64,000 nt of DNA. Origin: Bretschneidera sinensis (Eukaryota > Streptophyta > Magnoliopsida > Brassicales > Akaniaceae). Each line of letters opens with the position of its first letter. Within the stretch, counting starts at the first letter, position 1. The notes below the pieces were generated by a model that saw only the letters and a program-made list of their open reading frames with translations, made no database searches and had not been told where the DNA came from. Below, piece by piece: positions 11,719-63,649 of the stretch. Made by a program: the position numbers and the translations under genes. The stretch is from NCBI GenBank assembly GCA_023935145.1, contig CM043703.1, positions 25,629,727-25,693,726 on the forward strand, given 5' to 3'.

Positions 11719-12233
11719 TGGTATCAGAGCACCTCCCATCACTTCTCTCTTCTTCACGGCATGCCTTTTTTGCTTTCCTGGGCAGTTCTCAATTCTAATA
11801 AGCTTAGTGAAATACAGAGCAATGGACGAGGCTCAGCAACACTAGAAGAGGGTGTCAAAGGGATGCTTAACTTAAACTCTTTCTGATCAGATGGAGAAGC
11901 ATATTCAGCAAGGTTCAATAATGTTGTTCCAAGAAAAGTGTTGACCCTCACTCGTATTTTAATGATGACAAACACAACTGTTATTATACTAACTAAGTGT
12001 AGTAGGCAACAAAAGCGTTCAACCAAGGATCAAAGTTCAAGAACTCAAACCGAATCAAAGTATAAAGTGAAGACTGAAGAAATAGTATAGGTCTAAGGTT
12101 TTAGAACCAATGTAAGTCTCACTTATACACTGTAATAGCTTGTTCAATGGCTCGAACAAAAAAGGTTTTCAAAGCCGATCATTTTAAAACAAACATTTTA
12201 AATTAAAACGAAAAAACTGGGTTGGAAGACAAC

Positions 12234-12445
12234 TCAGTCGACTGGGTACATATACCAGTCGACTGGCATATGAGACAGTAGGTCTCCAGTCGACTGGGTC
12301 ATTCATACCAGTCGACTGGTAAAACGGACAGTGAGTCCCCAATCGACTGGATGAAATAACTCAGTCGACTAGATACCCAGAAGGTCTGAAAACGTGATTT
12401 TTTCAAGTGAACCCAGTCGACTGGTATCACGACCCAGTCGACTGG
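12234..12445 (+). promoter_or_regulatory. Phased CCAGTCGACTGG palindrome array in CopB U3
   Basis: Eight copies of the 12-bp palindrome CCAGTCGACTGG are present, five perfect. Their centres are at 12239.5, 12260.5, 12291.5, 12313.5, 12344.5, 12366.5, 12418.5 and 12439.5, giving steps of 21, 31, 22, 31, 22, 52 and 21 bp. All are close to whole helical turns. Spacer sequences are unrelated. The array ends about 95 bp upstream of the TATA box. A role as binding sites for a dimeric protein, or as dense symmetric CG/CHG methylation sites, is inference. Confidence 0.85.
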
Positions 12446-12539
12446 TAGTTCAAAAATATGGCCGTTGGACTCCAAATCTGAACGTTTTAAAGCAAATCTT
12501 TTTCAAATTAAAGTCCTAATGGCCATATTATTTGATTGC

Positions 12540-12547
12540 TATATAAA
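12540..12547 (+). promoter_or_regulatory. TATA box of CopB 5' LTR
   Basis: TATATAAA in the context TTGATTGCTATATAAACCC, downstream of the palindrome array. The same sequence occurs in the 3' LTR near 21780. It sets U3 to the left and implies a transcription start about 30 bp downstream. Confidence 0.7.
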
Positions 12548-12760
12548 CCCATTCAATTGAGCATTCAATAGCAAGCTGCATATATTCAAAAAGAGTTGAT
12601 TTCACACAATCAAGTTAATATACTCTTGAAACACAAAAAGCTTTGAAATATTCTAATTGAGCCATTCTTCAAGCTTTACTTTGAAAGAGAGACATTATTC
12701 AGTTGTATAAGCTTCAATTAGCTGTTTTTCTACTATTTACTTTATATCATCTTTTGTAAA

Positions 12761-12823
12761 GGGATTACTTCCGAAAGGAAGGGGATTACTTCTGAGAGGA
12801 ATGTGATAGCTTCCGAGAGGAAG
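12761..12823 (+). repeat. Three 21-bp tandem repeats in the CopB LTR (R/U5)
   Basis: The units at 12761, 12782 and 12803 are each like GGGATTACTTCCGAGAGGAAG. Each contains an inverted CTTCC...GGAAG pair. They lie about 220 bp downstream of the TATA box, in the expected transcribed part. The 3' LTR copy is at about 22001-22063. Confidence 0.75.
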
Positions 12824-13112
12824 GGATTGTAAGGTTTGTACAACACCGGGAAAGTTGTACGACTAAGTTACTTAGTGGATTACTTCAAGGAGTTCCTTGA
12901 AGAGAGTGGACGTAGGGTCGGAACGAATCCGATATTGTTGAACCACTATAATCTGAGTTTGCATCCTCTTCTCTCTAAACTCTTTATTTATAGCACATTA
13001 CTTGTTTTGATTGTTTGTTGCTTATTCGTTTTTATAAACTTGTATTAATTCCGCAAAAAGTTTTAAAAACCCAATTCACCCCCCCTCTTAGGTTGAAACC
13101 TCGATCTACAAT

Positions 13113-16155: not shown

Positions 16156-18252
16156 ATGCTTTGTGAAAATAGTTTACCAAAATACTTTTGGGCTGAAGCC
16201 GTGAATACTTCTTGCTATATCTTAAATAGAATTTTGATAAGGCCTCTGCTTGATAAAACTCCATATGAACTATGGAAAGGGAGAAAGTCCAATATTTCCT
16301 ATTTTCGTGCTTTTGGTAGTAAATGCTTCATCTTAAATAACAATAAAACTAACTTGGGTAAATTTGATTCTAAGACCGATGAAGGAATATTTTTAGGATA
16401 TTCAACATCTAGTAAGGCTTATAGAGTTTTCAATAAGATAACTCTAGTGGTAGAAGAATCTATACATGTAACTATTGATGAATCTAACCCAATTAGTAGT
16501 AGAGAAGTTTCCTTTAAAGATGATGCAGATTTTATTCCAAGAATGGAAACTCCTACTCCCATTGTTGACCCAAAAGAGAGTTCACCTCAAGCAAATGAAG
16601 AGATGAAAACTCCCAATTTGGACCAACCATCCTCAAGTCAACAAGAGGAAAGTTTACCCAAAGATTGGAGGTATGTAAATTATCATCCAATTGATCAAGT
16701 GATTGGTGATCCTTCACAAGGGGTAAGAACTCGCTCTTCCATTAGAAATATTTGCAATTTTGTAGCTTATTTGTCTCAAGTAGAACCTAAGACATTTATA
16801 GAAGCTGAAAAAGATAATGATTGGATAATTGCAATGCAGGAAGAGATAAATCAATTTGAGAGAAACAATGTTTGGAAACTAGTTCCAAGACCTAAAAATC
16901 ATTCAATAATTGGAACTAAATGGGTATATAGAAATAAAATGGATGAAAATGGAATAGTAACTAGAATTAAAGCTAGACTAGTTGCTAAAGGATATAATCA
17001 AGAAGAAGGAATAGACTTTGATAAAACCTATGCTCCTGTAGCTAGATTAGAAGCTATTCGAATGTTATTAGCCTTTGCATGCTTTAATAAATTCAAGCTA
17101 TTTCAAATGGATGTGAAAAGTGCCTTTTTAAATGGCTTTATAGAAGAAGAGGTTTATGTTGAGCAACCTCTTCGATTTGAAAATCCTAGTCTTCCAAATC
17201 ATGTCTACAAGCTTTCTAAAGCTCTATATGGGTTGAAGCAAGCTCCAAGAGCATGGTATGAAAGACTAAGTAAATTTTTGATTGACAATGATTTTGTAAG
17301 AGGTAGAATAGACACAACTCTCTTCACAAAAACTCACAAAAATGACACTTTAATAGTTCAAGTATATGTTGATGATATTATATTTGGTGCTACTAATGAA
17401 TCTATGTGTCAAGAGTTTGCAAAGTGCATGCAAGGTGAATTTGAAATGAGCATGATGGGAGAACTTACCTACTTCCTTGGACTTCAAATCAAGCAACTAA
17501 AAGGAGACATCTTCATCAATCAACAGAAGTACATTAAGGACCTACTAAAGAGGTTCGGAATGGAAAGCTCAAAGCCACTTGGAACGCCTATGAGCACAAC
17601 TACTAAACTTGATCTTGACAAAGGAGGTAAAACTGTAGATTCTAAATATTATAGAAGCATGATAAGTGTTTTACTTTATTTGACTACAAGTAGACCTGAT
17701 ATAATGTTCAGTGTATGCATGTGTGCTAGATTTCAGGCTAATCCTAAGGAATCACATGTAGTTGCAGTAAAAAGAATCCTTAGATATCTACAAGGAACCC
17801 AAACCATAGGATTATGGTACTCTAGAGATTCATCTTTTGAGCTTGTAGGTTATTTAGATGCTGATTTTGCTGGATGTAGGTTAGATAGAAAAAGCACAAG
17901 TGGTACATGCCAATTCTTAGGAGCTATGTTAACCTCTTGGTTTTCCAAGAAACAAAATTCTGTTACACTATCAACCGCTGAGGCGGAATACGTTGCAGCT
18001 GGAAGTTGTTGTGCCCAAGTATTATGGATGAAACAACAACTAGAAGACTTTGGCATGAACCTAAAAAACATCACAATATTTTGTGATAATACTAGTGCTA
18101 TCAACCTAACCAAGAACCCTATTCAGCACTCTAGAACAAAACACATAGAAATAAGACATTATTTCTTAATAGACCATGCTAAAAAAGGTGACATAAGATT
18201 AGAATTCATACATTCGGAAGATCAAATAGCTGACATTCTTACAAACCACTAG
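16156..18252 (+). CDS. CopB reverse transcriptase-RNase H (open)
   Basis: An open frame of 698 codons. It begins with the integrase tail ([40 protein letters not shown]). RT starts near residue 220 ([20 protein letters not shown]), with [33 protein letters not shown] and the catalytic YVDDIIFGA near residue 404. RNase H carries DADFAGC near 567, STAEAEYVA and [10 protein letters not shown]. It ends at ADILTNH, close to the usual end. The ATG at 16156 is internal to the original gag-pol frame. RT copies element RNA into cDNA. This is the best-preserved part of CopB. Confidence 0.9.
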
Positions 18253-18459
18253 GTGAAGCTAGTTTCTGTAAGATAATAATGTTAATGGGGTTGCTGGATT
18301 ATGATAAACTGAATATCTGATTGCTTCATAATTCATCATATGCATGTTTGACATCTAGTGAAAGAGTATTAATTCTTGTTTAAATATCTCCCTCACTCAT
18401 GATGTCATAGATAAACAAATTTTATGCTATATTTTAAGACCGAAAATTTTTATAAGGGT

Positions 18460-18796
18460 CCAGTCGACTGGTGAATCTATACCAGACAACTGGTAAGTCA
18501 CTGCCCTTTCTTTCAGTCGACTGGTAAGTTTGACCTAGTCGACTGGTAAGTCTCTGTCTCTTCTTCCAGATGACTAGTAAATCCTGTCCAGTAGTCTGGT
18601 ATCTCTAGACCCTGTTTGGAGCCAATTTTTTGAAAATCAGTTGTCATACAGTCGACTGGTCAATTCAATCCAGTCGACTGGTATCTTACTGTCAGTTCAC
18701 CCAGTCGACTGGTTCATGAACCCAGTCGACTGGTATGAAAACTGTTCATCTTTCTAAAGGGACCCAGTCGACTGGTAACTCGAACTAGTCGACTTG
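18460..18796 (+). promoter_or_regulatory. Second phased palindrome array, upstream of the CopB extra ORF
   Basis: Twelve CCAGTCGACTGG-type sites, several degenerate, have centres at 18465.5, 18487.5, 18518.5, 18540.5, 18571.5, 18593.5, 18653.5, 18675.5, 18706.5, 18727.5, 18769.5 and 18790.5. The steps are 22, 31, 22, 31, 22, 60, 22, 31, 21, 42 and 21, the same 21-22/31 rhythm as the U3 array but with different spacer sequences. It lies between RNase H and a TATA box at 18808. It is best read as the enhancer part of an internal promoter (inference). Confidence 0.8.
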
Positions 18797-18807
18797 TATC
18801 GCGATTC

Positions 18808-18815
18808 TATAAAAG
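18808..18815 (+). promoter_or_regulatory. Candidate internal TATA box for the extra ORF
   Basis: TATAAAAG sits 18 bp after the centre of the last palindrome and 219 bp before the ORF's ATG. The stretch 18816-19026 contains no ATG at all and includes a pyrimidine-rich CTCTCTCTAC, as expected for a capped plant mRNA leader. A promoter for a subgenomic RNA is inferred, not shown. Confidence 0.55.
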
Positions 18816-19026
18816 AGATTGTTCATTTTTCTGATTTTTTACGCCATTTTCGAGCACCCCTGTTTTCTCTCTCTACAAAAATTCACCATTTTGATCCAAA
18901 AACCATCCAAACTTCATCTAAACACACCGATCTACTCATCCATAACGAGATTTTTAACTTTCTACGGTTAAAATCTCTTATTTTCACCAAAATCCCTTTT
19001 ACCCAAAAAACTCCATTTTCTTCAAA

Positions 19027-20292
19027 ATGAGTGATAAAATTCGTGTAAAATTCACAACAAGTGGACCTAATGCGCCTAAAAAGCCAAGGTCTTTGAAACC
19101 TTCAGCATCGGAGTCGCGAGAAAAGGGAGCAGCGGGCTCATCTAGCAGAACGCCCAGAACAGAGTTAGAGGAAACTCTGTTTTCCAGTCCGGCCGCTCAC
19201 GCAAGATATAACTCCATTATCCGTCATAAGAAGATCATGAAGGGTAGAGTTGTTGATTTCGACTTTATTCGTCATGGAAATTTTGATATTCTGTCAGCCA
19301 TTGAGGCAATAAATCTGACCCCACTGGTCAGAATACATGAAAAATATTACCTGCGACTGATTCACCAGTTCTACGCGAACTTGGTGAAACCCAGTCCTCT
19401 GGCTCTGAGATTCAGAACCAGAGTCAGCGGTGTGGAGTTTGAGGTCAACACTGACCTCTTGATGAGTATATTGAGTATCCTTGTAAGGGGGATTCAGTGG
19501 AGTCTGGATGGATGGCCAGACAGTTTTGACGTCGAGGCGGCCTGTCAGATAGTCAGGGGAGACCCTAACTATGTGTACAAATCCACTACATTTCACACGT
19601 GTAGTGACATGCCCCTCGACTTAAAGATGTTTTAGCTGATTTTCAGTTGGACCATCCACCCTAGACTCGGGAGTCGAGGGTATCTATCTAAGATAGATAC
19701 AGTATTGATTTGGTGCCTTAAATCTTGGCACCACTTCAATATTTATCCTCTGCTGCTCGCCAACATGATAAATGGAGAAACAAGCGACTCCGGGTTTCTT
19801 CCTTACGGGATGCTCATTACACTCATACTCCAGCACTTTCGGGTACCTCTGCCAAACTATGAGGCTCAGGATATTGGACCGACGGACATCATCAATGTCT
19901 CATCACTGAAGAAGATGGGATGTGCGGTTCTTGACGGCTCCCTCCATCCAAAAGCCGGGAAGCACTTACGGATACGAGGAGATGAGAGTGATAATGATGA
20001 TGATGAGGAGGAGGCTGCTACCTATGCTGATATGGACATTGACACCCGAGCACCTCCGATTGGTGACTCGAGTACTGGTCAGACTGGATACGGAGATATA
20101 CTTCAGGCTATCTCGAGCCTTCAGATGACGATGGAGTCCGGATTCCAGTCCATGCAGTCAGAGTACCAGAGATTGAGCTCCTCCATCGACCACCTACGGG
20201 ACGACTTCGAGTTATATCGAGAGCACATCGAGGGTTCCCTAGCTGAGATTAGGGAAATTCTTCGTGATGGCTCGGACTCTCCCGCCCTTTGA
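19027..20292 (+). pseudogene. CopB extra ORF (SIRE env-position ORF), one internal stop
   Basis: The ATG at 19027 is the first ATG after the candidate TATA. The frame runs to 20292 (about 421 residues), broken only by TAG at 19633. The N-terminus is basic and Ser/Pro-rich (GPNAPKKPRSLKPSASESRE). The central part (LVRIHEKYYLRLIHQFYANL; PRLGSRGYLSKID; ANMINGETSDSGFLPYGMLI) resembles the 'putative plant transposon protein' family (from memory). An acidic run (SDNDDDEEEA) and a C-terminal coiled coil (LQMTMESGFQSMQSEYQRLS) follow. I see no signal peptide or convincing transmembrane segment, so an envelope role is not supported. CopB2 carries the same ORF. Confidence 0.8.
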
Positions 20293-20795: not shown

Positions 20796-20856
<61 letters not shown>

Positions 20857-21177
20857 CTGCGTTTGTCTGTTTTAAAGGGTGGTTTTATTCGAAAAACAGA
20901 GGAGACTCTGTCCAATTTTTCGTAAAATCCAAACACTTAGTCTTTTTATCTATTTTTACATCATTAGTTTTGTCATCATCAAAAAGGGGGAGATTGTTGA
21001 ACCTCACCCGCATTTTAATGATGACAAAACACAATTGTACTGCGTTTGTCTGTTTTAAAGGGTGGTTTTATTCGAAAAACAGAGGAGACTCTGTCCAATT
21101 TTTCGTAAAATCCAAACACTTAGTCTTTTTATCTATTTTCACATCATTAGTTTTGTCATCATCAAAAAGGGGGAGAT
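20293..21177 (+). other. CopB 3' noncoding region with polypurine tract
   Basis: No ORF after 20292. It contains an (AT)n run at 20798-20853 and the duplicated 3' end described separately. The functional polypurine tract AAAAAGGGGGAGATT ends just before the LTR at 21178. Confidence 0.7.
20798..20853. repeat. (AT)n microsatellite, about 28 units
   Basis: A pure alternating AT run in the CopB 3' noncoding region. It is immediately followed by the first copy of the 183-bp tandem duplication. Confidence 0.95.
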
Positions 21178-21221
21178 TGTTGAACCTCACCCGCATTTTA
21201 ATGATGACAAAACACAATTGT
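20856..21221 (+). repeat. 183-bp tandem duplication over the polypurine tract/LTR junction
   Basis: The unit starting ACTGCGTTTGTCTG occurs at 20856 and again at 21039. Each copy includes AAAAAGGGGGAGATT and the first ~44 bp of the LTR (TGTTGAACCTCACCC). There are thus two polypurine tracts and a 44-bp false LTR start at 20995-21038 before the real 3' LTR. Confidence 0.9.
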
Positions 21222-22350
21222 TATTATACTAACTAAGTGTAGTAGGCAACAAAAGCGTTCAACCAAGGATCAAAGTTCAAGAACTCAAATCAAATCAAAG
21301 TATAAAGTGAAGACTGAAGAACTAGTATAGGTCTAAGGTTTTAAAACCAATGTAAGTCTCACTTATACACTGTAATAGCTTGTTCCATGGCTCAAACAAA
21401 AAAGGTTTTCTAAACCGATCGTTTTAAAACTAACATTTTAAATTAAAACAGAAAAACTGGGTTGGAAGACAACCCAGTCGACTGGGTACATATACCGGTC
21501 GACTGGTATATGAGACAGTAGGTCTCCAGTCGATTGGGTCTTTCATGCCAGTCGACTGGTAAAACGGACAGTGAGTCCTCAGTCGACTGGATGAAATAAC
21601 CCAGTCGATTGGATACCCAGAAGGTCTGAAAACGTGATTTTTTCAAGTGAACCTAGTTGACTGGTATCATGACCCAGTCGACTGGTAGTTCAAAAATATG
21701 ACCATTGGACTTCAAATCTAAACATTTTAAAGCAAATCTATTTCAAATTAAAGTCATAACGGCCATATTATTTGATTGCTATATAAACCCATTCAATTGA
21801 GCATTCAATAGCAAGCTGCATATATTCAAAAAGAGTTGATCTCACACAATCAAGTTAATATACTTTTGAAACACAAAAAGCTTTGAAATATTCTAATTGA
21901 GCCATTCTTCAAGCTTTACTTTGAAAGAGAGACATTATTCAGTTGTATAAGCTTCAATTAGTTGTTTCTCTACTATTTACTTTACATCATCTTTTGTAAA
22001 GAGATTACTTCCGAAAGGACGGGATTACTTTCGAGAGGAAGGGGATAGCTTCCGAGAGGAAGGGATTGTAAGGTTTGTACAACACTGGGAAAGTTGTACG
22101 ACTAAGTTACTTAGTAGATTACTTCAAGGAGTTCCTTGAAGAGAGTGGACGTAGGGTCGGAACGAATCTGATATTGCCGAACCACTATAATCTGAGTTTG
22201 CATCCTTTTCTCTCTAAACTCTTTATTTACAGCACATTACTTGTTTTGATTGTTTGCTGCTTATTCGTTTTTATAAACTTGTATTAATTCCGCAAAAAGT
22301 TTTAAAAACCCAATTCACCCCCCCTCTTGGGTTTAAACCTCGATCTACGA
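21178..22350 (+). repeat. CopB 3' LTR
   Basis: Starts TGTTGAACCTCACCC and ends CGATCTACGA, immediately before target duplication AAAAG. The palindrome array (21474-21680) keeps the same spacing as the 5' LTR, though some sites have point changes. The LTRs differ at scattered bases, so the insertion is not very recent. Confidence 0.9.
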
Positions 22351-45946: not shown

Positions 45947-47158
45947 TGTAGACTGAGGTTCCAACCCAAGAGGGGAGTGAATTGGGTTTTTAAAAACTTT
46001 TGCTAATTACTTTCAAGTTTATAAAAACAGTTAAATGCACAAGCGTACAAACAAATAATGTGCTTTAAGTAAAAGATATTAAGGAAGATAAAGTGCAAAC
46101 TCAGTTTATAGTGGTTCGGTAATATTGGATTTGTTTCGACCCTATGTCCACTCTCTTCAAGGAACCTCCTTGAAGTGATCCACTAAAACTTTTAGTCGTA
46201 CGACTTCACGGGTGTTGTACAAACCTTACAATTGATCCCTTCCTCTCAGAAGCTAATCCCTTCCTTGTGGAAGCTTACAAAGAAGTACTTAATTCTAAAC
46301 ACTCTAAGAGTTATTGCAACTCTTTCCCTTTTACAATAAATGTGAGTTGCTGTAAAGTAAATGGTAGAGAGATAGCAATGAATGCTTTTGAAATGAACAA
46401 TTTCTCTCTTTCAAGAAAAAGCTTGAAGAATGGCTCAACAATAAATTTTTCAAAGCTTTTAAGAATTAATAAGTAAACTTATGAATTGAATGTGTAATCT
46501 TGTTGTTTTAAGTGCTCATTGAAGTGGGTTTCTATAGCCTTAAGTTAATATGATGGTTAGACACTGACTTGGTAGGTTTAGTGGATTAAATGTTCAAGCC
46601 CTGCGTCTCAAACGATCATATTGTTGAATTACCAGTCGACTGGGTCTTTGTACTAGTCGACCGGTTCAAATGAGAAATCTCACTTTTAGGCTGTGGGAGA
46701 GTACCAGTCGATTGGGTCCTATGCACCAGTCGACTAGGAACTTTCTGTCCCAGTTTCCAATCGATTAGGTCATTGACACCAATCAACTGGGAACCTTCTG
46801 TCCTATATCCCAGTCGACTGGTAGAAGGAGCCAGTCGACTGGGTTGCCCTTCAACCCAGTTTTTCATGTTTCAAAGCGTTTTTGACTTGGAAGAGTTTGA
46901 ATAAATAGTTTTGTCAAAATTATTTTGTAAAAAGAGTCATAAGACAAGCTACTTACTTGAACATAAGAGATTTACAGTTTGTTTCAATACCTTAATACCT
47001 ATTCTATATCTTATATCTTGTCTTGGTATCTGATACGGGTTGAGTTCTTGCATCTTGATTCTTTGCTGAAAGCTTTTATCGTTTAAACACTTAGATAAAA
47101 CTGTTAGTAAAATTATAGTAGTGTTTTGTCACTATTAAAATTTAGATAAGAGTCAACA
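45947..47158 (-). repeat. CopB2 3' LTR with palindrome array
   Basis: 1212 bp; on the minus strand it starts TGTTGACTCTTATC and ends in the complement of TGTAGACTGAGG. The array at 46632-46842 has eight sites with centres at 46637.5, 46658.5, 46709.5, 46731.5, 46762.5, 46784.5, 46815.5 and 46836.5. Read in element sense the steps are 21, 31, 22, 31, 22, 51 and 21, almost identical to CopB. The TATA position holds TATAGAAA (near 46529-46536, minus). Confidence 0.85.
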
Positions 47159-47847
47159 ATCTCCCTATTTTTTATGATGACAAAACTAATGAGAGAAAAC
47201 AGTTTTAAAAACTAAGTGTTGGTTTTTTTTTTTTTAAAAATGGACAGAGTTTCCTCTGTTTTTGGATAAAACCAACCTGTAAAACAGTTCAAATGCAGTT
47301 TATAAACAACCCAACCAAGCAACTCAAAATAGACTTATATTCAACAAGATCTTCGAGGCAATACTCCCCTTAAATCTATGCTTTATTTAAAGTTTACAGT
47401 GATATTTCTTTGTTTCTCATTTTTCTCCTCCGTTTTAACAACAGTAGAAAAAGGGGTGCGAACTTAAAAAATAAGCAACACAGATATTACGGATAGTAAG
47501 ATTATGCATAAAAAAATTTGTATGCGAAAATTAGGCATTATTCGGAGCTGGGAAGACTTCTTAGGAAGAACTGAAATTTTTCATACCAGCAGAAGTAGTT
47601 AAAGCATATTATGGAGTAAAAAGTATTTAAACCAATTAAACATAGAGTGTAAATTAATGCAAGTATATGAACCATAAGCTAGACATGAAATATAGGCAAC
47701 TATATATGCAAATATCCATACATCATAGGTTTCTAGAAGCCAAATATTGAATATAATAACCGAAATGTATGATAAAGTAATAAATATTCGTGCTAAAATC
47801 AGCTAATAGCTATATAAAACAAAAAAAAAAAGATAACAACTAGTAAC
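47159..47847 (-). other. CopB2 3' noncoding region
   Basis: Homologous to 20293-21177 of CopB (polypurine tract, GGTTTTATCCAAAAACAGAG-like segment), without the (AT)28 run and without the 183-bp duplication. Both are therefore private to CopB. Confidence 0.65.
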
Positions 47848-48035
47848 TCAGCGAGCGGGAGAATCAGAGCCATCTTGAATAAGATCCTGACGCTCAGCTT
47901 AGGAGCCCTCTGTGTGCTCTCGATACAGCTCGAAGTCATCTCGAAGTGAGTGGAAGTCATGATGCACGGAATCAACAGAAGAGCTCAAGCTATGGAACCC
48001 GGGCTGCATGGATGGTTGGAGGCTCGAAATAGCCT
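47848..48035 (-). pseudogene. CopB2 extra ORF, C-terminal piece
   Basis: The minus strand encodes LRDDFELYREHTEGS and QDLIQDGSDSPAR before TGA at 47848-47850, matching the coiled-coil end of the CopB ORF. A stop interrupts after EGS. The piece is cut at 48035 by the Athila-type insertion. Confidence 0.75.
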
Positions 48036-48852
48036 TGTTGTGAGTTTTAATTTACTCGCAAGCGCACGAGTCGTTTGCAGTATAGCGTTGTGCAAGTGCG
48101 AGGTCGAATCCACAGGGAATTGCGTTGTGAAAATATAATTTTTAATCTAAACTAAGTCTATCTTAACCTAGTTCCGAATTTTGAATGATAATTTGTAAAA
48201 TAAATTAAAACTAAATTAAATTGATTTTAAAACTAATAATAAAAAGCACTAAGGTTTCCGAATCCACCCCACCGAAGTTAAGCATACATGTTCTAAAAAT
48301 ATAGCCTATCAAAACATTCTATGAATCCAACTATAAGACAAAAAACAAAGAATATCCCAACTAAACCAAAAGCACCCGATGTATCCGCTCTTAACAAATC
48401 ACAAAAGGGATTCCAATTTAATCGAAAAGCATTCAATGTATCTATCAGATGAAACACAAAGAAAATCCAACAGACAATTTAAACTCAATCAATTATAAGA
48501 TTAACTCAAATAATTGACAGAACATTTATACTAAAAATTGTCAGATTTGTACAAGCAAATCTGAACTACTACGCCAAACAACGGCGGGGCTTCATCTTCA
48601 ACCTTAGCTGAAGAGTCTAGCCACTCATAACTATAAAACTATAATAACAAGTGTTAAACATTTAAACTAAAACAACTGAATATAAAGAAATAAATAAAAA
48701 ACTTTACATGGGAGAAATTCCACTCGCTGACGGGCGGCGCTTCCCCTCGTGGTAGCAATGCCTTCGGGATCCACCAGAATGCTAGCGGACGTCCACCGGT
48801 AAACACCAAAGTGGCTCAGGAATTGTACATTGGATTATGAAGCCAAATGGTG

Positions 48853-48860
48853 TTTATATA
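48853..48860 (-). promoter_or_regulatory. TATA box in the Athila-type LTR (3' copy)
   Basis: TATATAAA on the minus strand, about 56 bp downstream of the last palindrome in element sense. The functional copy in the 5' LTR is at 57066-57073. Confidence 0.7.
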
Positions 48861-48915
48861 GGGGGAGACCCGGAGTAAAACAGGTTGCAGAAACGATGTG
48901 GGATACAGGCCCGTG

Positions 48916-49136
48916 TGCGCTCGATCGCAGTGTGGTGCGATCGATCGCAGGTACGATCGATCGCATGTCTTGTGCGCACGATCTCATGTGCGCTCGATCG
49001 CATGTCTGCTGCGATCGATCGCAAATGCACTGAACTTCAATTATTTCGATGTGGGATGTTGACCATGCGCTCGTTCAAAGGCAGGTGCGCTCGAGCGCTG
49101 GTGCGCTCGATCGCATATCTGTTGCGATCGAGCGCA
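48916..49136 (-). promoter_or_regulatory. Regular GCGATCGATCGC palindrome array in Athila-type U3
   Basis: Ten sites like TGCGATCGATCGCA or TGCGCTCGATCGCA. Centres are at 48922.5, 48942.5, 48958.5, 48979.5, 48995.5, 49016.5, 49072.5, 49092.5, 49108.5 and 49129.5, giving steps of 20, 16, 21, 16, 21, 56, 20, 16 and 21. Spacers are not conserved but their lengths are. The same array is in the other LTR (57129-57349). Confidence 0.85.
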
Positions 49137-49302
49137 ATGTCTCCAGAAGCTTCAAATCAACCTGAAATGCTGCACTTTCTCCACAAAGCTGTAAAAACAC
49201 ACAAAACACAAGAAAAACGTAAAATAAAGTAAAATAATACTAACTAAGAGCATAACAAATATAAGTTAAGGGTCTAAAATATGCAATATTTAAGACTCAT
49301 CA

Positions 49303-50594
49303 AATACCCCCAAACTTATATTTTGCTAGTCCCTTAGCAAAACAAAATAAAAGACTCAATGAAAAACAAAGAACATAAAGATAAAGTCATCACTCATGGT
49401 ATCCAAAAATTTAAGGAGCACACATCACCATGATATTCATTCATAAGCAAGCTTAAAAAGGTAAACCCATCTTCGCAATGAATAGAAATGTTAAAATCTA
49501 ATTACTTACAAAAGGCAGGATAAGGCATCACAAGCTTGAATCAGTGTAAGGTGAATTAGCATATAAAAATGAAGCTTCCAAGTAACTCTAATGTGTAAGG
49601 TCTCCATGTCTCAAGATTCACCGAATTTCCCATCAAAAATGAACGAAAAGGCATAGCTTTTATTTTATTCACTTTTTTTTTTATTATTATTATTAAGGCA
49701 CGGCTATGCTTAGTTCCCTTGAGCTTTCTAATTGACCCATGTAGCGAGTGTTAAGTCAATGACTCCCAAACCAAATGGTTTTAGGGCATTAGGTGTAAAG
49801 ACACCCCTAAGGACTTACTAACTCGAGTCAAAAAGGCTACGAAATTAAACCAACCTTAATATTACCAAGCAAAATTTCACCTTTTGACGTGAACACTCAC
49901 TGCTTACTGAGGCAAGAGGTCCAGTTACTCAGCGAAAAGTTTAATGATAATTTTTTTTTATATATTTTCCTATGCCCAAGAGTTCATCCAACAAGTCATC
50001 CAGTTTCAGTTAAGATAAGGAAAAACACACATTAAAATCACGTGTCATACCTCACATAATTTGTGCTAATGTGCTCGTGTGAGATTAGATCAAACATGTG
50101 AATTCTCAAAATGCCTAAAGTAAGTAACTAAATTTTAAAAATTTATCACCAGATCATGTGTTCAAAATGTTAAGCTCACCAATGACATCACATCACAGAA
50201 AATGTTTAGATCAACCAAAATTTCACGATAACATAAGCATGCATTTATCTCTATGACGAAAAGACAACAAATTAGGATAAAGTGTGTGATGTGTCTCTCA
50301 TACCCCCAAACTTAAATTACACATTGACCCCAATGTGTGACTAATATGGAAAGAGCTGACCTGAGATATGGAGAACTATCTGGACTGGTATAGCTCATAG
50401 CATACCCCCAAACTTGAACTGAAGTACGCTTTGTCCCTGAAAAATAAAAACTGGAAAACAAAAAATACTGGAAACAAACATTAATCATAAAAATGCGAAA
50501 TAATAAATAAACAAAAGAAAAGATAAGCTGTGGGATGCCTCCCATGAGCACTAAGTTTTACGTCTTCAGCTAGACTCTCCCTAGAATACTACAC
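49303..50594 (-). other. Noncoding region between pol and the 3' LTR
   Basis: About 1.3 kb with no ORF, where some Athila elements carry an env-like ORF. The 14-mer AAGTTTGGGGGTAT (minus strand) occurs three times: at the LTR (49304-49317), at 50300-50313 and at 50402-50415. The inner two could act as extra plus-strand primers (inference). Confidence 0.65.
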
Positions 50595-53500
50595 TCAATC
50601 TGAGTAACTAGGATCCTCCAACAGTATCGTCTCAATGTCCGGACTCCTCAACTCTAAGAACGGTTTCAGCCTCTGTCCATTTACCTTGAAAGTATTACCA
50701 TTCTTAGGATCCTCAATCTCGATGGCCCCATGAGGAAAAACCGATCGAATAATGAATGGGCCTGACCATCGGGATTTGAGCTTGCCTGGAAAAAGATGCA
50801 GGCGTGAATTATAAAGAAGAACTCTCTGACCCGGCTCAAAAGCTCGTCTCAAAATATTTTGGTCATGAGTCTTCTTCATTTGTGCTTTGTATGATCGGGC
50901 ACACTCATATGCATCATTCCGCAGCTCCTCCAATTCATTGAGTTGGAGCTTCCGTTGTGAGCCAGCCTTGGAAAGATTGAAATTTAGTTGCTTGACAGCC
51001 CAATACGCACGATGCTCTAATTCAACCGGAATGTGACATGCCTTTCCGTATACAATGTGATAGGGAGACATGCCAATTGGCGTCTTGAAGGCTGTCCGAT
51101 ATGCCCACAGTGCATCCGTCAATCGCAGAGACCAATCCTTTCTAGTAGGGTTCACAGTCTTTTCCAAAATATGTTTGATCTCACGATTTGAGATTTCCAC
51201 TTGACCACTCGTCTGTGGGTGATATGGGGTGGCAACTTTGTGCGTGATACAATATTTCTTCATCAACTGCTCAAAGATCTTGTTGCAAAAGTGCTTACCT
51301 CCATCACTTATGATTGCTCGAGGCGTACCAAAACGAGCAAAAATAGTGTCTTTCAAGAACTGGACCACAACTCTGTGGTCATTGGTTTTGCACGCAACGG
51401 CCTCCACCCACTTGGACAGATAGTCCACAGCAACTATAATGTATAAGTAGCCAAAGGAGTTTGGGAATGGTCCCATGAAATCAATGCCCCACACATCAAA
51501 AATCTCAACAATCAGAATAGGGTTGAGGGGCATCATATTTCTCCTAGAAAGACTCCCTAGCTTTTGGCAACGCTCACAAGATATACAGTAGGTGTGAGAG
51601 TCCCGAAACAGGGTAGGCCAATAAAATCCACACTGCAAAATCTTTGCAGCGGTCTTTTTAGCACTAAAATGGCCTCCACATGCATGATCATGACAAAAGG
51701 CGATGACATTAGATTGGTCATGCTCAGGAATACATCGTCTAATGATCTGATCAGGACAATACTTGAACAGGTAAGGATCGTCCCAAAAAAAGTGTTTTAC
51801 CATGGCCAAAAATTTTGATTTATCTTGCCTCCCCCAATGCAAGGGCATGTGTCCGGTGACAAGATAGTTCACTATGTCAGCAAACCATGGTGCGGGACTG
51901 TGAGCAATGTGCATCAATTGCTCATCAGGAAAGGTCTCAGAAATGGGAGTGGCAGCCTCACTGAATTCCACAATCAATCTAGACAAATGGTCCGCCACCA
52001 CATTTTCCGAACCTTTCTTATCCCGAATCTCAATGTCGAACTCTTGAAGTAGCAAGATCCATCGGATAAGACGAGATTTAGCATCTTTTTTAGAGAAAAG
52101 ATACTTCAATGCAGCATGGTCCGAGTAGATAATGACTTTAGATCCTAACAAGTAGGATCTGAACTTGTCTAGTGCAAAAACGACTGCAAGCAACTCCTTC
52201 TCTGTGGTAGAATAATTGAGTTGTGCGTCGTTTAGAGTTCGACTTGCGTAATAGATAGCATGGGGAAGTTTATCAACACACTGCCCCAAAACAACTCCAA
52301 CAGCATAGTCTGATGCGTCACACATAATCTCAAAAGGCACACCCCAGTTAGGTGGCTGAATAATGGGTGTGGACGTCAGAATTTCCTTCAGATCCCCAAA
52401 TGCTTTCTTACAATCCTCATCAAATAGAAATGGGGCATCTTTTTGCAACAACTTGCACAAGGGCCTGGCGATCTTACTGAAATTCTGGATAAATCGCCTA
52501 TAGAAACCTGCATGGCCCAGAAAAGATCGAACCTCTTTCATCGTACGTGGGGGTGGAAGGCTGGAAATCAAATCCACCTTCGCTTTGTCGACCTCAATCC
52601 CTCGATGAGATACGATATGCCCCAGTACAATTCCTTGCTTAACCATAAAATGGCACTTCTCCCAATTAAGCACCAGGTTCTTCTCCTTGCACCGTACCAA
52701 AACCAAAGAGAGACGGTGCAAGCACTCCTCAAATGTTGAACCGAAGACGGAGAAGTCGTCCATGAAAATCTCCAAGAACCGCTCTACCATGTCAGAGAAT
52801 ATACTAACCATGCACCGCTGAAAAGTGGCAGGTGCATTGTATAACCCAAAGGGCATGTGACGGTAGGCGAAGGTCCCAAAAGGACAGGTAAATGTCGTCT
52901 TCTCCTGATCTTCAGGGTCCACGGGGACCTGGTTATATCCAGAATAACCATCCAAAAAGCAATAATACTCGTGCCCAGCCAAACGCTCCACCATCTGATC
53001 AATAAATGGAAGTGGAAAGTGATCCTTCCTTGTGGCAGTGTTCAGCTTACGGTAGTCTATACACACTCTCCACCCAGACTGCACACGAGTTGGCACCAAC
53101 TCGTCATCCTTATTCTTTACTACCGTTAACCCAGCTCGCTTGGGTACGACATGAATGGGGCTCACCCACTTGCTATCAGAGATGGGATAAATGATCCCTG
53201 CATCTAACAGCTTAATAACCTCTGCCCTTACAACCTCTTGCATAGCAGGGTTGAGCCTTCTTTGCGGCTCCCTCGATGGCTTAGCATCTTCCTCTAAGTG
53301 TATCCTGTGCATCACCATCGAGGGGCTGATTCCTTTAATATCCTCAATGGTCCAGCCGATAGCTTCCTTGTGCTCTCTTAAAACATCTAATAATTTCTCC
53401 TCTTGAGCCTCTCCCAAATCTGAAGCTATTATCACAGGCAAACAGTGTGCTGGACCTAGGAACTTATACTTAAGATTATCCGGTAAAGGCTTAAGTTCCT

Positions 53501-56081
53501 TCTGTTGAGGTTCGGGTGATACCTTCTCCTCCTCCTCCTTGCTTTCTTGAGGATCAGACTCCAAAATGGCATTTACTTCCTCGAGTAACTTATCTAAACC
53601 CAAGTCCTCTCCAAAGTGAGCAAAGCATGCCTCCATGGGATCCTCAATGCTTGATTCATCCACAGTATCCTCAAGAATCTCCTCTATCAAGCATACATCT
53701 CTCATTTCATCATATTCCAGTGGTTGCCTAGTGATATCAAAAATGTTCAACTCCACTGTCATATTTCCGAAGGAGATCTTCATCACCCCTGTCCTACAAT
53801 TGATTAAGGCGTTAGCCGTGGCTAAGAATGGTCGCCCTAGAATCACCGGTATTTGAATCCCTACATTCTGAACCGGTTCTGTGTCAAGCACAATAAAATC
53901 AACGGGGAAATAGAACTTATCCACTTTTATCAAAACATCCTCAACTATCCCCCGTGGTCTTTTCACTGACCTGTCAGCCAATTGAAGCGTCGTGGTTGTG
54001 GGCTTCAATTCTCCTAACCCCAACTGCACATAGACTGAGTAAGGTAGAAGATTCACACTCGCCCCTAGATCCAAAAGGGCCCTCTCAATATGGCTGACTC
54101 CTATTGTGCAAGAGATGGTAGGACACCCCGGGTCCTTATACTTGATAGGTAACTTGCACTGAAGGATTGAACTGACCTGCTCGGTCAAAAATGCCTTTTT
54201 TGGGACATTCGTCCTCCTCTTGATAGTGACCAAGTCCTTTAAAAACTTGGCATATGATGGCACTTGATGGATGGCATCCAAAAATGGGATATTGATATGG
54301 ACTTGCTTGAATACCTCCAGAATTTCTTCATACTTCCCTCCTTTCTTGGGCGCCTGTAATCTCTCGGGGTAGGGCGCTCTAGGTAAAAATGAACTAGGAG
54401 GGTCTTTCTCAGTAGGTGTGGCTGTAGATGGCTCAGCATCTCTCTTCTCTGTGTTGCCACTCCCTTGCCCTTGCTGCATAGCAGGGCTCTCTTCCACTCG
54501 ATTGTCCATTTGTCTCCCAGACCTTAGTGTGACAATCGACTGTACTTGTTCCTCCCCGTGCGTTGGAGTTGATGAACTCTCAACCATAAATTGTCCTTTT
54601 GGGTTTTGCACGGGCTGACTGGGGAACTTTCCTTTCTCTCTCTCACCCAAGTGACTTGCAATTTGCCCTATTTGACTCTCCAGCTTGGCAATTGCTTGGG
54701 TGTTTACCATTGTTGCACTCCTCACATCGCTCATATTTTGGCTAGTCGCCTTCATGAATTCCTTGAGGGTGTCCTCAAGTGATTGAGAAACTGGCGCTGG
54801 TGTTTGAGCGGGTGCATGGTAAGCAGGTGAAGGTGCTGGATGGGCAGAACGACCATGATTAGGAATTTGTGGGGCAAATCCGGGAGGATATTGATTTTGA
54901 GCATGATGAGAGGATCCTCCTTGATTCATTGGTTGGTTCTGCCTCCATGAAAAATTTGGGTGGTTCCGCCACCCTGGATTGTACGTCTCAGAGTACGATC
55001 CATTTGACTGCCTTCGAAAGTCATTGAAAGCATTTACTTGTTCCATAGGATACTCGGCACAAGCCGGCATTGATGGGCAATTCTGTGCTAGATGCATGGG
55101 ACTAGCACAGATGGAACAGCTTTCAACATTGAATGTGTTGGCAGCATTAATGGATTGGCTCACAGTGAGAGCGTCAATCTTCTTAGTGAGGGCATCTAAC
55201 TTTATCCTCAAATCAGCGTCCTCTCGGACCTCATAGATGCCTCCCCTCTTAGGAGCACGAATGGACTTATCTCGACAGCTTGAAAAATCCCACTGCTGTG
55301 AGTTGTCGGACAACTTGTCCAACGCCATATATGCTTCGTCTCCTGTCAGACTCAAGAATGCCCCCCCATTCATAGACTCGATCATGCTACGGTTGGGTTG
55401 AGTCAACCCTTGGTAGAAGAATTGAACGAGTCTCCACTTCTCATATCCATGTGGAGGGCATCTGATCAGTAACTCTTTAAAGCGCTCCCAACTTTCAGAG
55501 AACTTCTCATCCTCGTCCTGAGTGAAAGAGCTAATCTCCTTACGGTACTCATTCACTCTAGACATTGGGAAAAACTTATGGTAAAATTTACTAAGTAGGT
55601 TTTCCCAAGATGTGATAGATCCGGACGTGTTGGAGTCCAACCACGCCCTAGCTCTATCGTGAAGGGAGAAAGGGAAAAGTCGAAGATGGACTGACTCCTC
55701 AGAGAAGTTATGGAATTTGAATGTAGCACAAATGTCTTTGAACTTCTTCACATGACTATAAGGATTTTCAAGATCTAAGCCATGGAATGAGGGTAGGAGT
55801 TGGATAACATGTGGCTTCAAATCAAAGTGTGTGGCATTGGTTGGTGGCAACACTATGCAGGAAGATGAGTTAGTCGCAACGGGTGCGAACAAATCCCTAA
55901 GGGATGTAGTGGAGTCCACGTTCCAAGCTCTAGGTTGCTCTACATGTTCAGGTTGATTAAAATTTTCTCCCATCTCAACAGTCTCTCTCTCAACTAGCGC
56001 TCTTTTCTGTCTCCTAAGAGTTCTTTCTAAGTCGGGATCTAAATGTGTCAAATCTAAGTTCAAGGATCTCCGACCAAGCAT
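50595..56081 (-). CDS. Gag-pol polyprotein, Athila-type Ty3/gypsy
   Basis: One open frame of 1828 codons from ATG at 56081. Gag core is at about residues 110-260 ([38 protein letters not shown]). CCHC knuckle [14 protein letters not shown] near 322. Protease [16 protein letters not shown] near 670. RT has [33 protein letters not shown] and catalytic FMDDFSVFG near 1104. RNase H has [14 protein letters not shown] near 1254. Integrase zinc domain [13 protein letters not shown]...CISCERCQ near 1464. Integrase core aspartates are in GIDFMGPF and ISDGGKHF, glutamate in [10 protein letters not shown]. All catalytic motifs seen are intact. Gag and pol share one frame, so processing must be by protease alone. 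Plus-strand frames here are antisense shadows. Confidence 0.95.
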
Positions 56082-56224
56082 ACACTATCAGAAAAATAAT
56101 GAGATACTAACCAGCAGAAGCAACAAAATAAAGCAAAAATAATTTTTTTTTTTTTAAACTAATTAAATTAACTAGTAGAAAAATAAAATCAATTCAGACC
56201 AAAAATTTTCACAAACAAAACAAC

Positions 56225-56243
56225 TTCCCCGGCAACGGCGCCA
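56225..56243 (-). other. Primer-binding site, tRNA-Asp type
   Basis: On the minus strand TGGCGCCGTTGCCGGGGAA, six bases inside the 5' LTR. It matches the tRNA-Asp-complementary site typical of Athila/Tat elements. Confidence 0.85.
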
Positions 56244-56249
56244 AAAACT

Positions 56250-57515
56250 TGTTGTGAGTTTTAATTTACTCGCAAGCGCACGAGTCGTTTGCAGTATAGC
56301 GTTGTGCAAGTGCGAGGTCGAATCCACAGGGAATTGCGTTGTGAAAATATAATTTTTAATCTAAACTAAGTCTATCTTAACCTAGTTCCGAATTTTGAAT
56401 GATAATTTGTAAAATAAATTAAAACTAAATTAAATTGATTTTAAAACTAATAATAAAAAGCACTAAGGTTTCCGAATCCACCCCACCGAAGTTAAGCATA
56501 CATGCTCTAAAAATATAGCCTATCAAAACATTCTATGAATCCAACTATAAGACAAAAAACAAAGAATATCCCAACTAAACCAAAAGCACCCGATGTATCC
56601 GCTCTTAACAAATCACAAAGGGATTCCAATTTAATCGAAAAGCATTCAATGTATCCATCAGATGAAACACAAAGAAAATCCAACAGACAATTTAAACTCA
56701 ATCAATTATAAGATTAACTCAAATAATTGACAGAACATTTATACTAAAAATTGTCAGATTTGTACAAGCAAATCTGAACTACTACGCCAAACAACGGCGG
56801 GGCTTCATCTTCAACCTTAGCTGAAGAGTCTAGCCACTCATAACTATAAAACTATAATAACAAGTGTTAAACATTTAAACTAAAACAACTGAATATAAAG
56901 AAATAAATAAAAAACTTTACATGGGAGAAATTCCACTCGCTGACGGGCGGCGCTTCCCCTCGTGGTAGCAATGCCTTCGGGATCCACCAGAATGCTAGCG
57001 GACGTCCACCGGTAAACACCAAAGTGGCTCAGGAATTGTACATTGGATTATGAAGCCAAATGGTGTTTATATAGGGGGAGACCCGGAGTAAAACAGGTTG
57101 CAGAAACGATGTGGGATACAGGCCCGTGTGCGCTCGATCGCAGTGTGGTGCGATCGATCGCAGGTACGATCGATCGCATGTCTTGTGCGCACGATCTCAT
57201 GTGCGCTCGATCGCATGTCTGCTGCGATCGATCGCAAATGCACTGAACTTCAATTATTTCGATGTGGGATGTTGACCATGCGCTCGTTCAAAGGCAGGTG
57301 CGCTCGAGCGCTGGTGCGCTCGATCGCATATCTGTTGCGATCGAGCGCAATGTCTCTAGAAGCTTCAAATCAACCTGAAATGCTGCACTTTCTCCACAAA
57401 GCTGTAAAAACACACAAAACACAAGAAAAACGTAAAATAAAGTAAAATAATACTAACTAAGAGCATAACAAATATAAGTTAAGGGTCTAAAATATGCAAT
57501 ATTTAAGACTCATCA
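56250..57515 (-). repeat. 5' LTR (element sense) of the Athila-type element
   Basis: 1266 bp, near-identical to its partner. It drives the element from TATATAAA at 57066-57073 (minus) with the palindrome array upstream at 57129-57349. Confidence 0.93.
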
Positions 57516-57520
57516 AGCCT

Positions 57521-57887
57521 GTAGTACATCATCATATCCAGCTGACCAGTACTAAAACCACAATGCGGTGGTGCTCAGTCATTAGTGTCCACAGTAGTGG
57601 TAGGGGCTGCATCACCCAGACTCTCATCCTCCTCCTTACTGTTGTCATCCTCTCCAATCCTGATGCTATTCTTGGCCTTGGAGTAGATTATCCCATCTCA
57701 GATCATGCATCCCATCTTCTTCAGAGAAGAGTAGTTGATGATATCTTTGGGGCCGATGTCCTGAGCCTCAGAGATAGGAAAAGGAACTTGAAAGTGCTGG
57801 AGGATGACAGTGATGAGAATCCAATAGGGAAGGCATCCAGAGTCACTAGCTTCGCCATTGATCATGTTGGTGAGCAGTAGGGGGTAG
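57521..57887 (-). pseudogene. CopB2 extra ORF, middle piece
   Basis: The minus strand encodes YPLLLTNMINGEASDSGCLP, YWILITVILQHFQVPFPISE and AQDIGPKDIINYSSLKKMGC, closely matching the CopB ORF (YPLLLANMINGETSDSGFLP). Then comes a degenerate acidic stretch. It is cut by the Athila-type element on the left and CopC on the right. Confidence 0.85.
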
Positions 57888-58142
57888 ATATTTGTTGGTA
57901 TTTGTCTAAGGTTTAAACATGGTTCAAACATGGTTCAAACATGGTTAAGGTTTGAACAGGTCCAAGTATGGTTCAAAGATGGTTAAAGTCTAAACCAAAG
58001 GTGGAGGATCAAAGTTCAGCAAGTTAGAAGGCTGCACACATGTGTGTGCTTCATTTTGGAACAAGGGAAGGCCATACGCACTAGTGTGCACACTTCTGCA
58101 CACAAGCAGAAGGGTATTGTGTGAAGGGGACAGCAACTTAGA

Positions 58143-58226
58143 GCTGCAGCACGGAGCTGCAGCGCTGGAACCTAGCAGGAATAGCAGAAAGGACAGAAAC
58201 TTGGAGCTGCAGCACGGCGCTGCAGC
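58143..58226 (+). promoter_or_regulatory. GCTGCAGC palindrome pairs in CopC U3
   Basis: Perfect GCTGCAGC at 58143-58150, 58156-58163, 58206-58213 and 58219-58226, giving steps of 13, 50 and 13 bp. The 3' LTR keeps the same spacing (62906-62989), with one site mutated. A CACTAGTG palindrome lies just upstream (58079-58086). The cluster ends about 167 bp before the TATA box. Confidence 0.7.
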
Positions 58227-58392
58227 TTTGGCCGGCACACATGGACAGCATGCTTTAGCCTTCTCTTAGGTGCGTGAATGCAAGGACAAAATGCACAGCA
58301 CAACTTAGGATTGATGGAGGGCCATGGTTAAGTGGTCATCAAGATCTAAGGGTGGAGAATGACACACAAGATTGGACAAGAAGTTGGTGCAC

Positions 58393-58400
58393 TATATAAA
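58393..58400 (+). promoter_or_regulatory. TATA box of CopC LTR
   Basis: TATATAAA in GGTGCACTATATAAAAGG. The 3' LTR counterpart is at 63156-63163. Confidence 0.7.
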
Positions 58401-63644: not shown

Positions 63645-63649
63645 ATATT

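What the first reader, a model, noticed from the sequence alone, without database searches (positions are those of the whole stretch)
18460..19027. Same array plus TATA box and ATG-free leader in front of the extra ORF: a probable internal promoter
Seen: twelve sites with steps 22, 31, 22, 31, 22, 60, 22, 31, 21, 42, 21; TATAAAAG at 18808 directly after the last site; 211 bp with no ATG; then the ORF's ATG at 19027. The stretch upstream of the TATA (18253-18800) has many ATGs, so scanning from a genomic RNA could not reach this ORF. Inference: CopB makes a second, subgenomic mRNA for the extra ORF using a copy of the LTR's regulatory grammar. I know of no such split promoter in SIRE-type elements, but could not search.
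Basis: partly seen in the sequence, partly recalled or inferred. Interest (0 to 1): 0.92.

Follow-up and report, generated by a model that had tools for sequence, protein, structure and literature searches.

The report
Retrotransposon's second, internal gene promoter
A plant retrotransposon carries, inside its body and in front of an extra gene, the same kind of palindrome array that sits in its terminal repeats, followed by a TATA box kept in 47 of 48 copies examined, so the extra gene is likely transcribed from its own internal promoter rather than from the element's end.

Summary
In 48 copies from the same 1.21-Gb plant genome the array recurs (8-15 sites each), the TATA box is kept in 47 and the leader is ATG-free in 37. 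On the copies' tree the palindromes, the TATA box and the ORF are held by selection, while the array spacers drift (sites versus spacers P = 3e-12). G content is about 7% between TATA and ATG. Best reading: an internal promoter for a PF20167 (Athila-type) accessory gene. A conserved pyrimidine tract plus AG, in 45 of 48 copies but not the window's own, keeps splicing alive as a rival. Transcripts could not be examined. The idea is not new: Bousios et al. 2010 reported palindromes in LTRs and upstream of ENV in Sireviruses and favoured an internal promoter without finding one. New here are the constrained TATA, the leader, helical phasing, the array's apparent inverted orientation, and the Athila-type ORF.

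The parts
11938..13110 (+).
   Evidence: 94.8% match to the 3' LTR; 60 differences in 1171 aligned sites
12234..12445 (+). LTR array of 8 CCAGTCGACTGG-like sites
   Evidence: phased, R 0.97
12540..12547 (+). LTR TATA box TATATAAA
   Evidence: the same string in LTR pieces L080-L084, L086, L087
13166..13723 (+). gag, Retrotran_gag_2 of Ty1/copia
16156..18252 (+). last pol ORF, RVT_2; it ends 774 bp before the extra ORF
18460..18796 (+). internal array of 12 CCAGTCGACTGG-like sites, predicted enhancer of the internal promoter
   Evidence: 8-15 sites in each of 48 copies; sites constrained against spacers
18808..18815 (+). TATA box TATAAAAG, predicted core promoter
   Evidence: 47 of 48 copies keep TATAWAW here; 1 change in 5 invariant positions against 12.9 expected, P 3.4e-5
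18838..18848 (+). predicted transcription start zone, about 30-40 bp past the TATA box (inferred)
   Evidence: position inferred from general plant promoter knowledge (recalled); G content drops from TATA+20 on
18863..18876 (+). pyrimidine tract, ending in AG in 45 of 48 copies but AC in this copy: 5' UTR pyrimidine element or 3' splice site
   Evidence: positions 18867-18876 show 10 changes against 25.9 expected
18816..19026 (+). ATG-free, G-poor leader
19027..19635 (+). extra ORF, 202 aa in this copy; 418-420 aa in 8 of 30 longer loci; PF20167
19705..20292 (+). later part of the interrupted extra ORF
   Evidence: likeness to the C-terminal half of the copies read by eye
20985..21175 (+). Sirevirus-type polypurine tracts AGGGGGAG at 20985 and 21168, in a 183-bp tandem duplication
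21177..22348 (+). 3' LTR, with array at 21474-21685

Best explanation
The stretch 18460-19026 is likely an internal promoter that would make a separate, shorter mRNA for the extra gene of this Sirevirus-like Ty1/copia element. Shown by sequence: a helically phased palindrome array of the LTR's kind, a TATA box 11 bp behind it, a G-poor leader without ATG in this copy and in 37 of 48 copies, then an ORF whose codon pattern shows purifying selection. Inferred: one or more dimeric nuclear factors bind the palindromes in the LTR and in the internal array, so both promoters respond to the same signal. RNA polymerase II would start about 30-40 bp past the TATA (about 18840), ribosomes would scan the open leader to the ATG at 19027, and the RNA would end in the 3' LTR as the genomic RNA does.
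For: All 48 distinct copies (the window's and 47 others) carry the array, with 8-15 sites each, and 47 of 48 keep TATAWAW in the aligned place, mainly in three forms (TATAAAAG, TATATAAG, TATAAATA); the leader is ATG-free in 37 of 48. Tree test, internal/terminal changes: sites 46/275 against spacers 180/319, P 3.5e-12; ORF codon positions 1+2 93/439 against third positions 167/351, P 3e-8. It holds in the 38 copies not chosen by the array, also with a tree from ORF columns only: sites versus spacers P 6e-13 and 1.5e-10. The five invariant TATA positions changed once against 12.9 expected (P 3.4e-5), and its two W positions changed only A<->T. G content is 17-28% in the 140 bp before the TATA, 1-16% in the 20-bp bins from TATA+20 to +219, and 15-43% in the next eight bins, inside the ORF. 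LTR and internal arrays are both phased at about 10.5 bp. Pol readthrough would meet 19 in-frame stops. Literature: of 13 Sireviruses with such repeats, the nine with ENV have extra copies before it and the four without ENV have none there (PMC2829016, section 9).
Against: No transcript was seen. The pyrimidine tract with AG at 18863-18876 (AG in 45 of 48 copies) is conserved too and resembles a 3' splice site. 11 of 48 leaders hold an ATG, and ATG gains on internal versus terminal branches (1 versus 9) are too few to show selection. The predicted start zone lies in the most variable part, 18827-18866. TATA-like strings are common in AT-rich DNA: TATAAA occurs 58 times on the + strand of the window. 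Six other ENV-containing Sireviruses lack such repeats altogether (PMC2829016, passage).
Confidence: 0.7

Rival explanations
1. The extra gene is expressed by splicing of the LTR-driven genomic RNA, with the 3' splice site at the conserved pyrimidine tract plus AG (18863-18876), as predicted for Athila and reported for Bagy2. The array would then be only an enhancer or a relic.
For: A pyrimidine tract ending in AG in 45 of 48 copies; 10 changes in 18867-18876 against 25.9 expected, P 3.4e-4. Divergence is 0.25-0.29 per site just upstream (18827-18866) and 0.06-0.12 just downstream (18877-18906), as at an intron-exon border. Three of the four best-scoring donors (12834, 13662, 12614) keep their GT in the window and the three other leaders compared. 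Spliced ENV-like mRNAs are reported for barley Bagy2 (PMC7264820, passage).
Against: It leaves the constrained TATA and array unexplained. No donor stands out: the best score (8.98) is reached by 72 of 200 shuffles, and keeping GT is common (38 of 53 GTs are kept in all four leaders). A CTRAY branch-point motif is present in only 24 of 48 copies. On the internal/terminal ratio alone the tract is not distinct from spacers (1/9 against 180/319, P 0.11). The window copy has AC instead of AG.
Confidence: 0.2
2. Both routes exist: the internal promoter and a spliced genomic transcript feed the same ORF under different conditions.
For: Both the TATA/array and the tract plus AG are conserved.
Against: The pyrimidine tract can equally be a 5' UTR element that raises expression (recalled from plant promoter literature, not tested).
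Confidence: 0.07
3. The array and TATA are a relic of an LTR fragment captured inside the element, without function, conserved only because the copies are young.
For: The spacers of the LTR and internal arrays show weak residual similarity (inverted: 2 of 300 shuffles as good; direct: 4 of 300).
Against: In the same copies spacers and third codon positions have diverged while sites and TATA have not, on internal branches specifically.
Confidence: 0.03

Closest known systems
Sirevirus repeated motifs (RM) in LTRs and upstream of ENV (Bousios et al. 2010, PMC2829016; abstract, passages and sections 9, 10, 19 read)
   Same: High-copy palindromic repeat in the LTR upstream of the TATA and a second cluster between pol and the extra gene; in that paper the second cluster is found only in elements with the extra gene.
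   Different: Here the palindrome CCAGTCGACTGG lacks the CGG-CCG signature (as Tnd-1 does); a constrained TATA, a G-poor leader and helical phasing are shown; that paper could not conclusively identify the internal promoter.
Grande gene23 (Gomez-Orte et al. 2013; known here only through passages of PMC7264820 and citations in PMC11728184 and PMC11963269)
   Same: Accessory gene of a plant LTR retrotransposon with its own promoter in the internal region.
   Different: Ty3/gypsy and antisense to gag-pol; nothing about an array shared with the LTR in the passages read.
Foamy virus internal promoter with Tas (PMC8670036 and PMC4929722, beginnings of abstracts in the search listing only)
   Same: LTR promoter plus an internal promoter, both answering to one factor.
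   Different: Vertebrate retrovirus; here no trans-acting factor is known and the ORF's role is untested.
SIRE1 of soybean (as described in passages of PMC2829016)
   Same: Sirevirus with an extra ORF after pol.
   Different: SIRE1 uses stop-codon suppression; here 774 bp with 19 in-frame stops separate pol and ORF.
Athila aORF with Transposase_32, PF20167 (PMC11728184, passages read)
   Same: Same Pfam domain in a sense ORF; that paper classes Athila aORFs as lying 3' of gag-pol.
   Different: Athila is Ty3/gypsy; here the domain sits in a Ty1/copia element behind a palindrome array.

Membership tests
Ty1/copia (Pseudoviridae) | copia-type gag and RVT_2 reverse transcriptase | tested here: met
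   Retrotran_gag_2 9e-26, RVT_2 1.1e-75
Sirevirus genus | multiple PPTs AGGGGGAG upstream of the 3' LTR | tested here: inconclusive
   Exact copies at 20985 and 21168, but both lie in one 183-bp tandem duplication; shorter matches at 20687 and 20737
Sirevirus genus | poly-C integrase signal near the LTR 3' end | tested here: met
   CCCCCCC at 13079 and 22318
Sirevirus genus | PBS TATCAGAGC next to the 5' LTR | tested here: inconclusive
   TGTCAGAGC at 13116, one mismatch
Sirevirus genus | palindromic RM cluster in the LTR upstream of a TATA box | tested here: met
   8 sites then TATATAAA; seven of eight fetched pieces of other copies alike, L085 holds no LTR
Sirevirus RM | CGG-CCG core signature | tested here: not met
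   CCAGTCGACTGG has no CGG/CCG; the published Tnd-1 RM lacks it too
Sirevirus genus | placement by RT phylogeny | not tested
   No named plant RT set was at hand
ENV-containing Sirevirus | extra RM cluster before the ORF after pol | tested here: met
   18460-18796
ENV-like protein | transmembrane segment and envelope character | not tested
   Only Pfam was run: PF20167, no envelope family above threshold
RNA polymerase II internal promoter | conserved TATA at fixed distance before the gene | tested here: met
   47 of 48 copies
RNA polymerase II internal promoter | capped 5' ends about 30 bp downstream | not testable with these tools
   No RNA data
Spliced ENV-type expression (Bagy2, Athila) | 3' splice site before the ORF | tested here: inconclusive
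   Tract plus AG in 45 of 48 copies, not in the window copy
Spliced ENV-type expression (Bagy2, Athila) | conserved 5' splice site in the leader | tested here: inconclusive
   Best donor score at shuffle background; GT kept in four leaders for three of the four best donors, but also for 38 of 53 GTs overall
SIRE1-type stop-codon suppression | ORF in frame directly after the pol stop | tested here: not met
   774 bp and 19 in-frame stops between them

The most novel reading that the evidence does not exclude
The element is a two-promoter autoregulated system. The PF20167 protein made from the internal promoter returns to the nucleus and binds the CCAGTCGACTGG palindromes, each holding one CG and two CHG methylation contexts, in both the LTR and its own promoter. 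It thereby activates the element or shields it from methylation, a plant LTR-retrotransposon counterpart of foamy virus Tas or of the VANC anti-silencing proteins.
Probability: 0.12. Interest if true: 0.88.

Novelty: new variant of a known kind. Interest (0 to 1): 0.62.

Why it matters
How Sirevirus-type retrotransposons express the extra gene behind pol has been open since an internal promoter was proposed (2002, 2010, as told in PMC2829016). This family supplies a candidate for the missing core promoter, with evolutionary evidence that array and TATA are kept by selection while the array's spacers drift, so the question becomes directly testable with one cDNA or reporter experiment. If right, one regulatory code controls two promoters inside one mobile element. 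The palindromes are also where the copies' terminal branches lose C's to T's at CG and CHG positions, so the same sites may link element activity and silencing.

Tried and rejected
Readthrough from pol: rejected, 19 in-frame stops in the window copy. ATG-free leader as stand-alone evidence: dropped, since 36% of dinucleotide shuffles are ATG-free and ATG gains on internal branches are not shown to be rare (1 internal, 9 terminal). Straight copy of the LTR promoter: not supported (different array-TATA distance, inverted auxiliary motif). Homologues in other organisms: none at E 1e-3 among 4672 candidates in the protein collection, queried with the 420-aa ORF of L015; none in viral contigs, queried with the window's 202 aa (9 stretches matched a pattern, none confirmed). 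Structure of the 202-aa window ORF: mean pLDDT 38, useless, so no fold search was made. Test for reverse-transcribed spliced junctions by a genome-wide pattern count: not completed, machine busy.

Bias to note: 10 of the 48 copies (L001-L008, L078, L079) were found by an exact 23-mer inside the array, which fixes one site; one search repeats the tests without them. L029 was dropped because it is the same place as L006. L085, meant as a 5' LTR/leader piece, matched nothing and was not used; L081 carries a second cluster of sites further on that was not followed.

Full report
The window lies in a plant genome of 1.21 Gb (size; 'plant' from the element types and family names). The element discussed has LTRs at about 11938-13110 and 21177-22348 (94.8% alike), a copia-type gag and an RVT_2 reverse transcriptase, and an extra ORF between pol and the 3' LTR. 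In this copy the ORF is cut after 202 aa. Of the 30 loci long enough to show it (L009-L038), 8 hold an open frame of 418-420 aa; L001-L008 end before the ORF does. The full ORF matches PF20167 (Transposase_32) at E 1.4e-12 to 1.5e-14 in the four copies scanned. Literature ties PF20167 to ORF1 of Athila (PMC11728184, passages), so an accessory domain known from a gypsy lineage sits here in a copia element.

Observation. The array is far beyond chance, and the LTR and internal arrays share their spacing rule: steps of 21-22 and 31 bp, all on one helical face (R 0.88 internal, 0.97 both window LTRs, 0.96 the LTR of a second copy at 46632-46842; 0 of 2000 random placements as regular in each). Over 48 copies, 434 of 480 steps lie within 1.6 bp of a multiple of 10.5 bp; 44 of the other 46 are the 59-61 and 81-82 bp steps.

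Conservation. I compared 48 distinct copies: L001-L038 without L029 (same place as L006), and L069-L079; L009 is the window's own. Ten were chosen by an exact 23-mer in the array, 37 by ORF similarity and one (L069) as the neighbour of the window's end. Each has 8-15 sites at up to 3 mismatches; the ladder is often incomplete (L072 has 8 sites). TATAWAW stands in 47 of 48 (L023 lost it); the leader is ATG-free in 37 of 48, 200-214 bases long, with mean G 7%. Base composition in 20-bp bins aligned on the TATA shows G at 17-28% in the 140 bp before it, 1-16% from TATA+20 to +219 (ten bins, seven of them at 9% or less), and 15-43% in the eight bins after +220, where the ORF begins.

Constraint. 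A FastTree tree with Fitch counting separates changes on internal branches (lineages that went on copying) from those on terminal branches (mostly single, probably dead copies). Internal/terminal: array sites 46/275, spacers 180/319, ORF positions 1+2 93/439, third positions 167/351, TATA core 0/1, tract plus AG (18867-18876) 1/9. Sites versus spacers P 3.5e-12, ORF P 3.2e-8; tract versus spacers on this ratio P 0.11, not significant, and the TATA core alone is uninformative on this ratio (P 1) because almost nothing changed. By total changes, the five invariant TATA positions show 1 against 12.9 expected at the spacer rate (P 3.4e-5), its two W positions changed six times, only between A and T, and the tract plus AG shows 10 against 25.9 (P 3.4e-4). 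Without the 10 array-selected copies, sites versus spacers gives P 6e-13, or 1.5e-10 with a tree from ORF columns only; 37 of 38 keep TATA, 29 of 38 leaders are ATG-free, 36 of 38 have the AG. Leader positions other than the tract have internal/terminal ratios (0.45-0.55) like the spacers (0.56), so apart from the tract the leader sequence shows no constraint by this ratio.

Decay of the sites. Terminal-branch changes in sites are 73% C>T or G>A (202 of 275), against 48% in spacers (152 of 319), and fall mostly on the CG and the two CHG contexts of the palindrome. That is what cytosine methylation of silenced copies would leave (inference).

Orientation. In the 135 spacers of 31-bp steps in the internal arrays, CTGTC occurs in 48 and GACAG in 0. 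The two 31-bp spacers of the window's 5' LTR both hold GACAG, and the two of the second copy's LTR, read in sense, both hold GGACAG (read by eye from the spacers printed). In the LTR pieces of other copies, GACAG occurs in 8 of 17 printed spacers of about 31-bp steps and CTGTC in 0 of 17 (counted by eye; one of the 17 belongs to the second cluster in L081). So the internal array looks inverted relative to the LTR array. Spacer alignments with sites masked are weakly above chance in both directions (2 and 4 of 300 shuffles), so common descent is plausible but not proved.

Rival by splicing. In 45 of 48 copies the tract at 18863-18876 ends in AG (20 copies TTTTCTCTCTCTAG, 16 CTTTCTCTCTCTAG); the window copy has AC. 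Just upstream (18827-18866) divergence is 0.25-0.29 per site, just downstream (18877-18906) 0.06-0.12. This would suit a 3' splice site. Donors: the best score (8.98, at 12834) is reached in 72 of 200 shuffles. Of the four best-scoring donors, three (12834, 13662, 12614) keep their GT in the window and in the three other leaders compared, and one (13428) loses it in L084; 38 of 53 GTs are kept in all four, so this is no more than background. CTRAY branch motifs appear in 24 of 48. Splicing does not explain the TATA and array. A genome-wide test for reverse-transcribed spliced junctions was asked for repeatedly and not answered.

Comparison within the genome. A search with the ORF protein gave 150 scored matches of 7461 candidates, so the family is large. 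A search with PF20167 gave 150 scored matches of 9379 candidates. The 30 loci fetched from it lack CCAGTCGACTGG sites (0 at up to 2 mismatches). I take them as Athila-type gypsy elements: four (L043, L048, L052, L065) carry upstream of the ORF a stretch 63-72% like the pol of the gypsy element in the window; the name Athila is from recall, and the 84-aa pol end of L048 matched no Pfam family. In 27 of 30, a TATTTAAA stands 363-374 bp before the ORF (for L056 and L059 the ORF start was not found by pattern and a fixed point was used), and the last 330 bases before the ORF hold 12-14% G; L048, the one locus examined for it, has a GC-rich tandem array upstream. As 24 of the 29 others are over 91% identical to L039 in their best local match, this is a lead for parallel internal promoters, not evidence of constraint.

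Prior knowledge. Bousios et al. 2010 (PMC2829016; abstract, passages, sections 9, 10 and 19) report palindromic repeats in 13 Sireviruses, with 77 of 79 linker copies upstream of ENV, present in nine ENV-containing elements and absent from the linker of four without ENV. Six further ENV-containing Sireviruses lack the boxes. [quoted passage not shown] MASiVEdb (PMC3414828, passages) lists stop-codon suppression and an internal promoter as mechanisms by which the ENV-like gene is expressed and speaks of them as elucidated, with three references whose full texts I did not see; their titles in its reference list concern SIRE1 suppression, splicing of ENV-class elements and Athila4/Calypso. [quoted passage not shown] My nine searches showed, in titles and beginnings of abstracts, no paper that demonstrates a sense internal promoter in a Sirevirus; most subscription papers are not in that library.

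Verdict. The finding is real and its interpretation is probably right (0.7), with splicing the one serious rival (0.2). It is a new variant of a known arrangement rather than a new kind. The protein's role as regulator of both arrays is a bold but open possibility (0.12).

Noticed in passing
L039-L068 (ORF near 1318; L048 753-834): Gypsy-type copies with the PF20167 ORF have TATTTAAA about 370 bp before the ORF in 27 of 30 loci; L048 has a GC-rich tandem array upstream of it. This suggests a parallel internal promoter in a gypsy element.
   Followed up: partly
48034-57516, minus strand: A young Ty3/gypsy element (LTRs 99.7% alike) has its own palindromic LTR array built on TGCGATCGATCGCA; between pol and the 3' LTR the tandem-repeat scan lists only a two-copy 17-bp repeat at 50446-50478.
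   Followed up: partly
45948-47946, 57708-57892 and 63644-64000, minus strand, continuing in L069: Probably one older copy of the same family, split by two later insertions; its internal array is decayed (9 sites) but keeps steps of 21-22 and 31.
   Followed up: partly
20856-21221: A 183-bp tandem duplication (99% match) that contains the polypurine tract and the first bases of the 3' LTR, directly after an AT repeat.
   Followed up: no
18460-18796 in 48 copies: Terminal-branch changes in the palindromes are concentrated at CG and CHG cytosines, suggesting that these sites are methylated in silenced copies.
   Followed up: partly
59553-59909: A 60-bp unit repeated about six times, overlapping an open frame (59605-61047) in the stretch between the repeats 57883-58879 and 62658-63642.
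   Followed up: no
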